NCBI GenBank assembly: GCA_017623655.1 | Contig: JAGAON010000008.1 | Coordinates: 1 to 64,000, forward strand | Direction: 5' to 3' | Origin: Prevotella sp. | GTDB lineage: Bacteria > Bacteroidota > Bacteroidia > Bacteroidales > Bacteroidaceae | DNA length: 64,000 nucleotides | Shown: one piece after another, positions 25,086 through 61,203 of the stretch | Numbering within the stretch: position 1 is the first letter of the stretch | Layout of the letters: every line of letters starts with the position of its first letter | Notes under the pieces: generated by a model | Told to the model about the DNA's origin: nothing | Database searches by the model: none | Seen by the model: only the letters and a program-made list of their open reading frames with translations | Program-made: the position numbers and the translations under genes

Positions 25086-25397
25086 TGAACCCCGAAGGGG
25101 TGAAATAACACAGCACAGGGCGTGAGCCCTGTGTTACGATGGGTACGCGAAAACAGTATTGGCACCCCGTAGCCGGCAGGCGAGGAATGCGAAGCATGAC
25201 GAGGGGTGTAAATTAAAACGAAAATGAGAGTATAAGAACGGTTACATAATAAAAAGCGAAAAGGGTGTCAACACCCCTCGTCGCCCTCCGGGCTTCTCGC
25301 CTACCGGCTTCGGGGTGCCAATAGTTTTGTTCGCCCAATGACACAATACCCAGCGCTTACGCACTGGGCTGTGTTATGTCACCCCTTCGGGGTTCGC
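25086..25397. repeat. Family D large palindrome, copy 1
   Basis: The outer arms GAACCCCGAAGGGGTG (25087-25102) and CACCCCTTCGGGGTTCG (25380-25396) are inverted. Inside them are inverted ACAGGGCGTGAGCCCTGTG and CCCAGCGCTTACGCACTGGG blocks, then GCACCCCGTAGCCGG opposite CCGGCTTCGGGGTGC, around an AT-rich centre near 25240. The whole unit is an imperfect palindrome of about 310 bases without a long ORF. A shorter relative lies at 61042-61203. Confidence 0.8.
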
Positions 25398-38839: not shown

Positions 38840-38847
38840 TAATTTTG
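38840..38847 (+). promoter_or_regulatory. Possible promoter upstream of the structured RNA
   Basis: TAATTTTG matches the -7 box; a TTG at 38813-38815 is 24 bases upstream, slightly too far. It is followed by an A/C-rich leader typical of Bacteroidales mRNAs. Confidence 0.5.
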
Positions 38848-38947
38848 TACAGCGTAACATTTGCCTGCAAACATCAGCAAGCAAACCGCACAATCAACGA
38901 ATGTACAACCCTTAACAACAGACAACAAGAAACAGACAGACAACTAA

Positions 38948-39019
38948 ATGGAACGCCACAATGAGCAAGCCCTTTCAAGGAAAGGTAGCTCCGAAGAATT
39001 AGGATTCAAACAAAACTAA
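38948..39019 (+). CDS. Candidate short ORF in the leader
   Basis: ATG at 38948 opens 23 codons (MERHNEQALSRKGSSEELG at its start) ending in TAA. It follows an A/C-rich leader (AACAACAGACAACAAGAAAC) of the kind that precedes real genes here. It could be a regulatory leader peptide for the downstream RNA switch, or the 5' stub of a deleted gene. No homologue is recognised. Confidence 0.3.
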   Translation: MERHNEQALSRKGSSEELGFKQN

Positions 39020-39147
39020 TCATCAACACAAAAGCGTCTCCATTCTTTTATAACTGAAAAAATATGATATATTGAGCTTTTAGCTCTTGTTCTCTCTATC
39101 GGAATACCGCCAATATTCAACCAACGAGGACAAGATGTATGAAAGTT

Positions 39148-39248
39148 CATGCCTATAAGGCGTGGACTGTTCTGCACTTGTTGTTGGAAAGGTCACTTGG
39201 CGGTAACCACGATAGAAACAAGTAAAAGAATGGTTGCACGCCTTTTTT
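39148..39248 (+). ncRNA. Structured RNA with intrinsic terminator and alternative stem
   Basis: Three nested helices can be drawn: AAGGCGTG (39157-39164) with CACGCCTT (39237-39244), GACTGTTCT (39165-39173) with AGAATGGTT (39227-39235, using G-U pairs), and ACTTGTT (39176-39182) with AACAAGT (39217-39223). A run of T follows, so the outer helix is a terminator. CATGCC (39148-39153) can instead pair with GGCGTG (39159-39164) and break that terminator. This is the layout of a riboswitch or attenuator for the gene at 39266, or of a self-terminated small RNA. I do not recognise its class. Confidence 0.6.
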
Positions 39249-39265
39249 ATTTCCAACAATTTATT

Positions 39266-40600
39266 ATGAACAAAAAAATCATTACCTCCGTTGCCATACT
39301 CGCAATGGGCATCACTGCACAAGCCCAAGTGGTATGGGATATGCCATCTAACTACGCTGGTATGAACTTCGTACCGGCAATCTTTACCTCAAACAATAAG
39401 GCCACCCTACAATTGTTTGACGATGGAGCAGGGAGTGGTAAAGCACACTTCTACATTTATGACGAAAACTGTCAGCTTTCAAAACATTTCCCAAAAGCTA
39501 CACAAACACAGAAAGTGGAGACTTACACAGAAGAGGCCTTTGTTACACCGACAGCAGCGAAATATCAGCATCCCCCGTACTTCTCACCTGTTTATGATAG
39601 CAATGGCCAAAAGATGACAGCCGCATCACAGGCAGAAATGATAGAAAAGTTACAAAACAAAGACCGTTACTCTTGCAATGCTTTTACTGATTTGGACGGC
39701 AATCCCGGTTGCTACTACACAAACCATCCTTACTACAAGGATTTTTACTTAGAAGATGTGTTTGGACAAGCATATCCTAAAAATTTCTACCGTATCAATG
39801 AAGACGGATATGTGTATAACGCAAGTTCTGTTTCCTACGCACCCGTATTTGATGAGCTTTCCGCCGAATGGCAGAAGGTAGAAGGTTCTTCTGAGTGGCA
39901 CGAACTGAGCCTCGGAAGGCCTTTCCACCCAGACTATATAGACGCAGATCAACTTCTTAACGTTAACGGTATCGTTTGCACCCAAACATTATTCAACGAT
40001 GATGATAAATGGGAATACTGCGTTCCACACATCGGAAGCGTCTCCACTGTATATAATAATAACGAAACTTATTCCATGACAAGCGACAACAAAGTCAAAA
40101 TAAGCAGAAGGGTTAACAACGTACCTTATTATGATGGTGTCGCCATATATAATGAAGACGGCCAGCTTGTGCAGACAATCAATTTAGGAAGCGAAACGAC
40201 AGAGGTTAATTGTAACGAAATTTTCTTCGAGAAAATGTTTAAGCTCAACGGCAAATTGTATTTGGATTTTTCATACAGATTAGGCGTCGGCGATTATTAC
40301 AAAGTGCTTTACCTCTATGACAAGAGTACAACTTCCGTAAAAGAGGTTGCACGTGCAAAAAGTGTTGCACCGTTTATAACGGCAAATGGCAACGCCATTA
40401 ATGTGAATATAACGGAGAGTGACGGAGACTCCAACGCTGTATTAGTGAATACAAGCGGACAGACAATGGCGACATCACACATTGTGTCCGGCAGTACATC
40501 CACCACTATCAACACTGCATCAGTGCCGAAAGGTATATATAATGTGGCCGTTGTAAAAGGAGGAAACGTTACGCGCGCACAGAAGATTGTGTTAAAGTAA
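39266..40600 (+). CDS. Secreted protein with type IX sorting domain
   Basis: The start at 39266 opens a signal peptide (MNKKIITSVAILAMGITAQAQ); a longer frame to 39149 lies in the structured RNA. The 444-residue protein has a beta-rich body with no recognised enzyme motif and ends in about 75 residues of type A T9SS sorting domain (VLVNTSGQTMATSHIVSG, then ASVPKGIYNVAVVKGG, then RAQKIVLK). It should be exported by T9SS and processed at the cell surface; PorQ and a PorE-like protein are encoded in this window. It is AT-richer than its neighbours. Confidence 0.85.
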   Translation: MNKKIITSVAILAMGITAQAQVVWDMPSNYAGMNFVPAIFTSNNKATLQLFDDGAGSGKAHFYIYDENCQLSKHFPKATQTQKVETYTEEAFVTPTAAKYQHPPYFSPVYDSNGQKMTAASQAEMIEKLQNKDRYSCNAFTDLDGNPGCYYTNHPYYKDFYLEDVFGQAYPKNFYRINEDGYVYNASSVSYAPVFDELSAEWQKVEGSSEWHELSLGRPFHPDYIDADQLLNVNGIVCTQTLFNDDDKWEYCVPHIGSVSTVYNNNETYSMTSDNKVKISRRVNNVPYYDGVAIYNEDGQLVQTINLGSETTEVNCNEIFFEKMFKLNGKLYLDFSYRLGVGDYYKVLYLYDKSTTSVKEVARAKSVAPFITANGNAINVNITESDGDSNAVLVNTSGQTMATSHIVSGSTSTTINTASVPKGIYNVAVVKGGNVTRAQKIVLK

Positions 40601-60738: not shown

Positions 60739-60765
60739 AGTCTTACGAGATTTAATGCTGTTGCT

Positions 60766-60790
60766 CCCTACTCTGTCAAAGGTTTTCGGG
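60766..60790 (-). promoter_or_regulatory. Conserved 5'-UTR motif, second copy
   Basis: CCCTACTCTGTCAAAGG followed by TTTTCGGG matches the 59904-59930 element with one internal change (T to C). It lies 28 bases upstream of the start codon, in the same relative place as the first copy. Confidence 0.65.
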
Positions 60791-60810
60791 ATTTCCCTTT
60801 ATTTCTGTTG

Positions 60811-61041: not shown

Positions 61042-61203
61042 GAACCCCGAAGGGGTGGCAGAAGCAAGCACAGGGTGCTAACCCTGTGTATATGTAGCAT
61101 GAACGCCTATCGGCTTCGGGGTTCCCAATACTGTTTGTTATCTACCACATTGATACACAGGGTTAGCACCCTGTGCTATATTATATCACCCTTTCAGGGT
61201 TCA
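61042..61203. repeat. Family D palindrome, copy 2
   Basis: GAACCCCGAAGGGGTG opens the unit and CACCCTTTCAGGGTTC closes it. In between, CACAGGGTGCTAACCCTGTG is inverted as CACAGGGTTAGCACCCTGTG. The centre is TATCGGCTTCGGGGTTCCC. It is half the length of the copy at 25086-25397. Confidence 0.8.

What the first reader, a model, noticed from the sequence alone, without database searches (positions are those of the whole stretch)
39148..39248. Structured RNA with mutually exclusive stems before a T9SS cargo gene
Three nested helices (8, 9 and 7 bp) end in an intrinsic terminator, and an upstream CATGCC can take the GGCGTG arm away from that terminator, as in a riboswitch or attenuator. It ends 18 bases before the ATG of a secreted T9SS protein. 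I do not recognise the class. If switchable, it would be a new way to control a T9SS cargo protein. Alternatively it is a self-terminated small RNA.
Basis: partly seen in the sequence, partly recalled or inferred. Interest (0 to 1): 0.72.

Follow-up and report, generated by a model that had tools for sequence, protein, structure and literature searches.

The report
Phylum-wide switching RNA before surface genes

Summary
Real, and larger than described. Window 39074-39248 (+) is one copy of a ~180-nt leader RNA without an Rfam 15 match at the copies scanned. A covariance model hits 177 of 299 same-genus genomes, 95 of 295 in the order and 18 of 296 in a phylum sample. Two mutually exclusive folds both covary: a four-way junction with kissing side hairpins (91% of cells paired, 41 of 48 pairs with two-sided changes) and an intrinsic terminator with an alternative 5' helix (92%, 12 of 23). 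G.U outnumbers A.C 727:69, so selection acts on this RNA strand. An ORF starts 3-46 nt downstream in 116 of 153 copies (random positions: 32). In the genus, 50 of 53 downstream genes (120 aa or more, within 60 nt) look secreted, against 40 of 180 other ORFs. Elsewhere it also precedes restriction-modification genes and a small HTH gene. Best reading: a new class of transcription attenuator, probably riboswitch-like, signal unknown, not specific to T9SS cargo. Termination, switching and ligand are untested.

The parts
38840..38847 (+). Bacteroidota-type promoter box TAATTTTG (TAnnTTTG), likely start of a leader of about 400 nt (inferred)
   Evidence: Sequence. Of 144 copies with enough flank, 70 have such a box 120-400 nt upstream (random 16%); of 149, 30 have one 30-120 nt upstream (random 5%; none of the 63 genus copies). 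The consensus itself is recalled.
38927..38939 (+). AAGAAACAGACAG, recurrent 5' leader motif
   Evidence: Seen upstream of many genus copies; a strict pattern is found in 20 of 62 genus and 19 of 84 other copies, no random control, so only loosely conserved
39074..39086 (+). 5' hairpin GAGCTTTTAGCTC
   Evidence: at least 94% conserved at most positions in 89 sequences, but 69 of these were fetched with a pattern that contains it, so that figure is inflated
39086..39101 (+). H1 5' strand (state A); 39086-39094 is also the P1 5' strand (state B)
39102..39118 (+). P2 hairpin GAATA-CCGCCAA-TATTC; loop 39107-39113 kisses P6
   Evidence: P2 89% paired, 4 of 4 pairs with two-sided changes; kissing pairs 94-95% paired, 15-20 of 88 sequences set aside for gaps
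39121..39137 (+). H2 5' strand (state A); 39126-39134 is also the P1 3' strand (state B)
39145..39167 (+). P3 hairpin, the anti-terminator (GTTCATGCC/GGCGTGGAC)
   Evidence: 97.7% of cells paired, 9 of 9 pairs with two-sided changes
39159..39172 (+). Terminator stem, 5' strand; overlaps the P3 3' strand
   Evidence: 88% of cells paired
39175..39187 (+). H2 3' strand (state A)
39191..39208 (+). P6 hairpin GGTCAC-TTGGCG-GTAACC; 39197-39203 pairs with the P2 loop
   Evidence: P6 94.5% paired, 4 of 4 pairs with two-sided changes; swap test of P2 loop x P6, mean WC run 7.99 vs 4.90 swapped
39210..39222 (+). H1 3' strand (state A)
   Evidence: swap test of the variable part, mean WC run 6.80 vs 2.70
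39228..39242 (+). Terminator stem, 3' strand GAATGGTTGCACGCC
39243..39248 (+). U-tract of the intrinsic terminator
   Evidence: 144 of 153 copies have at least 5 T in a 7-nt window at the end of the element
39266..40600 (+). Downstream gene, 444 aa, signal peptide, weak T9SS C-terminal domain (Por_Secre_tail)
   Evidence: frame: 25.7 bits, cut-off 27

Best explanation
The element is a cis-acting transcription attenuator, a new class of switching leader RNA spread across Bacteroidota. As RNA polymerase moves along, the leader folds into state A: outer helix H1, hairpins P2 and P6 joined by a kissing-loop helix, and a long arm H2-P3. This is complete once base 39222 is made, just before the terminator's 3' strand (39228-39242) appears. 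In state A the GGCGTGGAC strand is held in P3, no terminator forms, and transcription runs into the gene 18 nt downstream. When state A is not held, the emerging GAATGG strand grips the free toehold after P3 (TGTTC, 39168-39172), displaces P3 and forms the terminator. The 5' strands then re-pair as P1 (CTTGTTCTC with GAGGACAAG), so the CUUGU and ACAAG segments swap partners. The most likely switch is a ligand or protein that stabilises the kissing four-way junction (ON switch). Shown by computation: both folds, their covariation and exclusivity, strand, U-tract, gene adjacency. Inferred: that termination really occurs, the order of folding, the direction of control, and the existence of a signal.
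For: State A on 88 distinct sequences: 91.0% of cells paired, 754 cells with two-sided changes vs 246.6 +/- 16.8 in shuffles; slid versions at most 45.1% paired. The kissing helix was not in the model yet is 94-95% paired with two-sided changes at 6 of 7 pairs. State B, also not in the model: 92.0% paired, 115 two-sided cells vs 37.9. On an alignment made with a sequence-only model, state A is 79.7% and state B 92.4% paired, both above all 500 shuffles. Segment swaps: 0 of 300 reach the observed value in any of 9 tests. G.U:A.C 727:69. U-tract in 144 of 153. ORF start 3-46 nt downstream in 116 of 153 vs mean 32.5 at random positions and 16 outward on the other strand. Secreted-like genes in the genus 50 of 53 vs 40 of 180, Fisher p 2.6e-22. 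Predicted energies of the two states lie within 6 kcal/mol in 32 of 89 copies.
Against: No RNA 3'-end, TSS or binding data were available. State A is predicted the more stable in 60 of 89 copies (in the window's fold printed there the kissing pairs form a nested helix in place of P2 and P6), so default termination is an assumption. Support for P1 rests mainly on one pair (35 of 41 two-sided cells), and two of five measures for state B are reached by some shuffles (4 and 12 of 500). The downstream genes share no pathway, unusual for a metabolite riboswitch. Of 9 loci with the window's cargo gene or a homologue, only 3 carry the element, the window included. 37 of 153 copies lack an ORF start at 3-46 nt.
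Confidence: 0.74

Rival explanations
1. The RNA is the binding site of a protein: a dedicated RNA-binding regulator, or a NusG-type antiterminator of the UpxY/LoaP kind, rather than of a small molecule. The small HTH protein often encoded right after the element could be such a factor acting on its own leader. (Overlaps the best explanation in mechanism; differs in the signal.)
For: Downstream genes are functionally diverse, as expected for a protein- or stress-controlled regulon. A small HTH gene follows the element in 16 clustered loci outside the genus plus L098; by eye the next ORF looks secreted in 9 of these 17, and one of the next two in 11 of 17. UpxY and LoaP act on leaders (recalled).
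Against: No homologue of the HTH protein of L128 was found in the window's own (60% complete) genome, which has four copies of the element; the tool warns that such an empty answer proves little. The switch architecture itself needs no processive factor.
Confidence: 0.3
2. A self-terminated small RNA family acting in trans; genes downstream are only neighbours reached by read-through.
For: Promoter-structure-terminator unit; some copies have no gene close by (L096 none found; L089 first ORF 48 nt on).
Against: Same-strand gene start 3-46 nt downstream in 116 of 153, strong bias for secreted products, and a conserved anti-terminator that a pure sRNA would not need.
Confidence: 0.12
3. A DNA-level palindrome (cruciform site, MITE or REP-like repeat) that is mobile; the RNA structure is incidental.
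For: The core is a near-inverted repeat, several copies per genome, and the model also echoes on the reverse strand.
Against: G.T exceeds A.C 727:69 in the pairs; orientation is tied to the gene; copies within the three genomes compared are 63-86% alike, with no sign of a recent burst; two exclusive folds both covary. No exact match in viral contigs for two patterns, no phage record by blastn.
Confidence: 0.05

Closest known systems
Riboswitches with a kissing-loop aptamer and a terminator (purine, lysine, cobalamin classes; recalled)
   Same: Junction of helices held by loop-loop pairing, next to mutually exclusive anti-terminator and terminator
   Different: No Rfam family matches at the copies scanned; a four-way junction with the kiss between the two side arms; ligand unknown; the genes are surface and R-M genes rather than one metabolic pathway
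Flavo-1 RNA (RF01705), a Bacteroidetes motif
   Same: Multi-copy structured RNA motif in the phylum, sometimes in 5' regions (PMC9723704, section 19 read)
   Different: No Flavo-1 hit at the copies in 15 loci scanned at E up to 5 or 2; Flavo-1 is reported as indifferent to sense or antisense, whereas this element is oriented to its gene
UpxY / LoaP NusG-paralogue antitermination leaders (recalled)
   Same: Leaders of accessory surface or biosynthetic operons with antitermination
   Different: No cognate NusG paralogue was looked for; here the leader itself carries a complete switch
Published candidate lists: microbiome candidates (PMC8040213, passages), 104 motifs (PMC2864571, passages), 26 and 50 genomes (PMC8632094, PMC11109978, term search of the main text only)
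   Same: Bioinformatic structured RNAs, some from Bacteroidota; PMC8040213 includes palindromic, terminator-containing candidates
   Different: Supplementary tables could not be read here, so an unnamed entry there may overlap this element

Membership tests
Known Rfam 15 family | Covariance match to a curated family at the element | tested here: not met
   Window scan at gathering scores; 15 loci with copies at E<=5 (5 loci) or E<=2 (10 loci): every listed match lies outside the elements
Switching transcription attenuator (kind) | Mutually exclusive anti-terminator and terminator helices, both conserved by compensatory change | tested here: met
Switching transcription attenuator (kind) | U-tract after the terminator stem and a gene in cis | tested here: met
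   144 of 153; 116 of 153 vs 32.5 at random
Switching transcription attenuator (kind) | Measured condition-dependent termination | not testable with these tools
   No RNA-seq or in vitro transcription available
Riboswitch | Direct, specific small-molecule binding | not testable with these tools
   No binding data; the genes do not point to one metabolite
Leader-peptide attenuator | Conserved short reading frame in the leader with regulatory codons | tested here: inconclusive
   By eye only: no conserved ORF across the core; a two-codon ATG-AAA/ACA-TAG occurs upstream in many genus copies, not counted
MITE / REP palindrome | Strand-symmetric palindrome | tested here: not met
   G.T:A.C 727:69
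MITE / REP palindrome | Near-identical dispersed copies | tested here: not met
   63-86% identity within three genomes (28 pairs)
MITE / REP palindrome | Target-site duplications | not tested
   Not examined

The most novel reading that the evidence does not exclude
A phylum-wide new riboswitch (or protein-sensing) class in Bacteroidota in which one signal, read by a kissing four-way junction, sets expression of the two fronts that meet phages and hosts: variable secreted surface proteins and restriction-modification enzymes.
Probability: 0.3. Interest if true: 0.92.

Novelty: new variant of a known kind. Interest (0 to 1): 0.78.

Why it matters
In the two Bacteroidota transcriptome papers seen here the Rfam-predicted riboswitches named are vitamin-type (TPP in PMC7366714, cobalamin and thiamine in PMC9723704). 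This element is recurrent (up to 9 matches per genome, the scoring cap, some of which may be reverse-strand echoes), deeply conserved (hits outside the order), without an Rfam match at the copies scanned, and has an architecture explicit enough to test base by base. If the signal is found it would show how gut Bacteroidota switch BspA-type surface proteins and DNA-modification systems.

Tried and rejected
Rejected: (1) T9SS-specific control: 2 of 53 genus proteins scanned match the T9SS tail. (2) A known riboswitch: no Rfam match at the copies scanned. (3) Phage or plasmid element: 0 viral contigs for two exact patterns, 0 phage records by blastn, 1 plasmid record of Phocaeicola massiliensis, unannotated. 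(4) HTH protein as an obligatory partner: none found in the own genome, though that genome is 60% complete. (5) The 9-bp helix TGTTGGAAA/TTTCCAACA: not kept in three relatives. (6) A simple long hairpin: the minimum-energy fold of the single sequence uses the kissing pairs as a nested helix in place of P2 and P6, but P2 and P6 covary on their own, so the four-way junction is preferred; the rod remains possible as an intermediate.

Rows dropped and biases: model R1 used 41 of 46 aligned genus copies; five with broken or truncated cores (L029, L040, L045, L048, L049) were left out. The named loci were fetched by an exact pattern of the element's 5' end (80 returned; the scan found 120 and stopped at its limit), so conservation at 39074-39094 is inflated in A4. 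R1 hit 77 of the 80 (none at E<=1e-5 in L107, L153, L177), and 69 were given to (six copies repeated under another locus, L152 cut by a contig end, L156 and the three without a hit left out). A5 holds three reverse-strand rows among its 92. The 153 distinct copies come from 161 hits after removing identical cores. Pfam scans took 53 of 62 genus genes and 46 of 81 outside genes; the 46 leave out most of the named copies followed by secreted genes, so R-M and HTH are over-represented in that set. The searches of many genomes scored at most 9 candidates per genome with stricter filters, so counts are lower bounds, and some rows are reverse-strand echoes. One search translated one base out of frame and was not used. 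The signal-peptide test is my own hydropathy rule, not a trained predictor. Clusters of related downstream genes (12 clusters, 70 of 137 genes) include paralogues and one out-of-frame pair, and the genes were collected because they follow the element, so this is not a test of linkage; the direct test gave 3 of 9.

Full report
What is there. The window's stretch 39130-39270 folds at -50.6 kcal/mol, z = -6.46, with 0 of 200 shuffles as stable. GTTCATGCC/GGCGTGGAC (39145-39153/39159-39167) and the competing terminator stem (39159-39172/39228-39242, then T6 to 39248) are both in the sequence. The downstream gene starts at 39266 and encodes a 444-aa protein with a signal peptide and a weak T9SS tail (25.7 bits, cut-off 27).

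It belongs to a family. Blastn of 38840-39270 gave matches in 32 of 100 same-genus genomes. The 46 aligned copies showed a conserved core that starts at the GAGCTTTTAGCTC hairpin (39074). A covariance model R1 from 41 of them hits 177 of 299 same-genus genomes (63 of 130 of the better assemblies), 95 of 295 genomes of the order in 65 of 184 genera and 18 of 296 of a phylum sample. The own genome, 60% complete, has 4 copies; the two other rows are reverse-strand echoes of the palindromic core. Named carriers include Prevotella, Xylanibacter, Phocaeicola massiliensis, Paraprevotella, Muribaculaceae and Paludibacteraceae (a MAG labelled Clostridium and an Alistipes MAG also appear, the latter copy cut by the contig end). 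The nine divergent copies read from outside the order (L228-L236) keep complementary P2 and P6 loops by eye, and most end in a T-run.

Two folds. State A, in window numbering minus 39000: H1 86-101/210-222, P2 102-118, H2 121-137/175-187, P3 145-167, P6 191-208, and a kissing helix 107-113/197-203 between the P2 and P6 loops. State B: P1 86-94/126-134 and terminator 159-172/228-242. On A4 (89 matches, 88 distinct, fitted to nested state A) state A has 91.0% of 4022 cells paired, 41 of 48 pairs with two-sided changes, covariation score 0.505 vs 0.211 shuffled, and at most 45.1% paired when slid. The kissing helix was not part of the model; 15-20 of 88 sequences are set aside for gaps there. State B, also not part of the model, has 92.0% of 2009 cells paired, 12 of 23 pairs with two-sided changes (4 of 500 shuffles reach that) and 115 two-sided cells vs 37.9 (none reach it). 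Within it P1 rests mainly on one pair (35 of 41 two-sided cells); the terminator stem has 74 two-sided cells over 8 of 14 pairs. On A5, aligned with a sequence-only model, state A has 79.7% and state B 92.4% paired, both above all 500 shuffles for cells paired and covariation score; most of the variable strands of H1 and H2 drop to 58-64% there, I think because a sequence-only alignment misplaces them. A test that swaps 3' segments among the A4 sequences gives, as mean longest Watson-Crick run: kiss 7.99 vs 4.90, H1 variable part 6.80 vs 2.70, H2 variable part 5.79 vs 2.66, P3 5.35 vs 4.65, P1 7.17 vs 5.85, terminator lower part 4.74 vs 3.36; 0 of 300 swaps reach the observed value in any of 9 tests. 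Shuffles and swaps do not remove relatedness, so these are not probabilities.

RNA, this strand. Over the ten listed helices, G.T occurs 727 times and A.C 69 times (some bases are counted in both states). Only the kissing helix lacks this bias (2:6). A DNA palindrome or the opposite strand would not favour G.T.

Cis context. 144 of 153 copies end with at least 5 T in 7 nt. An ATG reading frame of at least 50 aa begins 3-46 nt after the element in 116 of 153, against 32.5 on average (maximum 44 in 50 draws) at random positions of the same loci and 16 outward on the other strand. In the genus, 50 of 53 downstream genes (at least 120 aa, within 60 nt) have a secretion-signal-like N-terminus, against 40 of 180 other ORFs in the same loci; outside, 28 of 45 against 99 of 350, but that group includes named Prevotella. 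Pfam: 16 of 53 genus proteins scanned have BspA-type repeats. Among 46 of 81 proteins from outside, a selected set, 5 match N6_N4_Mtase and 4 N6_Mtase, and 5 match PADLOC type III methyltransferase models. A small HTH gene follows the element in 17 loci outside the genus; by eye the next ORF looks secreted in 9 of them, one of the next two in 11. Against a fixed tie between gene and element, of 9 loci with the window's cargo gene or a homologue only 3 have it, the window included.

Mechanism. The predicted energies are -64.7 (A) and -60.2 (B) kcal/mol for the window; A is lower in 60 of 89 copies and the two lie within 6 kcal/mol in 32 of 89. In the window's fold printed there, state A uses the kissing pairs as a nested helix instead of P2 and P6, since that program does not compute pseudoknots. 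State A is complete at 39222, before the terminator's 3' strand. I infer co-transcriptional competition: state A, if held by a signal, sequesters GGCGTG in P3 and lets polymerase pass; otherwise the terminator strand invades P3 from its free 3' end. The exchange of CUUGU and ACAAG segments (H1+H2 versus P1) couples the junction to the terminator. The signal, the direction and the actual termination are not shown.

Known or new. No Rfam 15 family matches at the copies scanned. Papers: PMC9723704 (section 19 and passages) reports structured 5' regions and Flavo-1 hits in a flavobacterium; PMC7366714 (passages) names three TPP riboswitches in B. thetaiotaomicron; PMC8040213 and PMC2864571 (passages) list candidates; in PMC8632094 and PMC11109978 a term search of the main text found none of 'bacteroid', 'flavobact', 'prevotella' or 'porphyromonas'. 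Searches listed no paper whose title or shown abstract start describes this element; only the listed rows were seen, supplementary tables were not readable, and most subscription papers are not in the library, so an earlier description may exist. I file it as a new structural class within a known kind, the switching attenuator.

Noticed in passing
window 25088-25133 (-), 25349-25394 (+), 61043-61088 (-), 61156-61201 (+): Acido-Lenti-1 RNA (RF01687) matches above the gathering score, in two opposed pairs; further matches, mostly below the gathering score, in L041, L004 and L225.
   Followed up: no
window 60765-60800 (-): DUF805b RNA motif (RF02914) above its gathering score.
   Followed up: no
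L029, L040, L045, L048, L049: Copies of the element with part of the core lost, next to unrelated sequence.
   Followed up: no
upstream regions of genus copies (e.g. L016, L019, L050): A two-codon frame ATG-AAA/ACA-TAG in a recurrent GCCAATGAAATAGAAACAG-like stretch of the 5' leader (by eye).
   Followed up: no
L128, L131, L135, L138, L164, L179, L180 and others: A small HTH gene (66-98 aa) between the element and, in about half the cases, a secreted-protein gene outside the genus; three of four single scans gave no Pfam match, the fourth HTH_26.
   Followed up: partly
L012, L018, L030, L031, L034: Copies whose usual 5' leader seems replaced by the end of an upstream gene, suggesting the core can be fed by read-through (by eye).
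   Followed up: no
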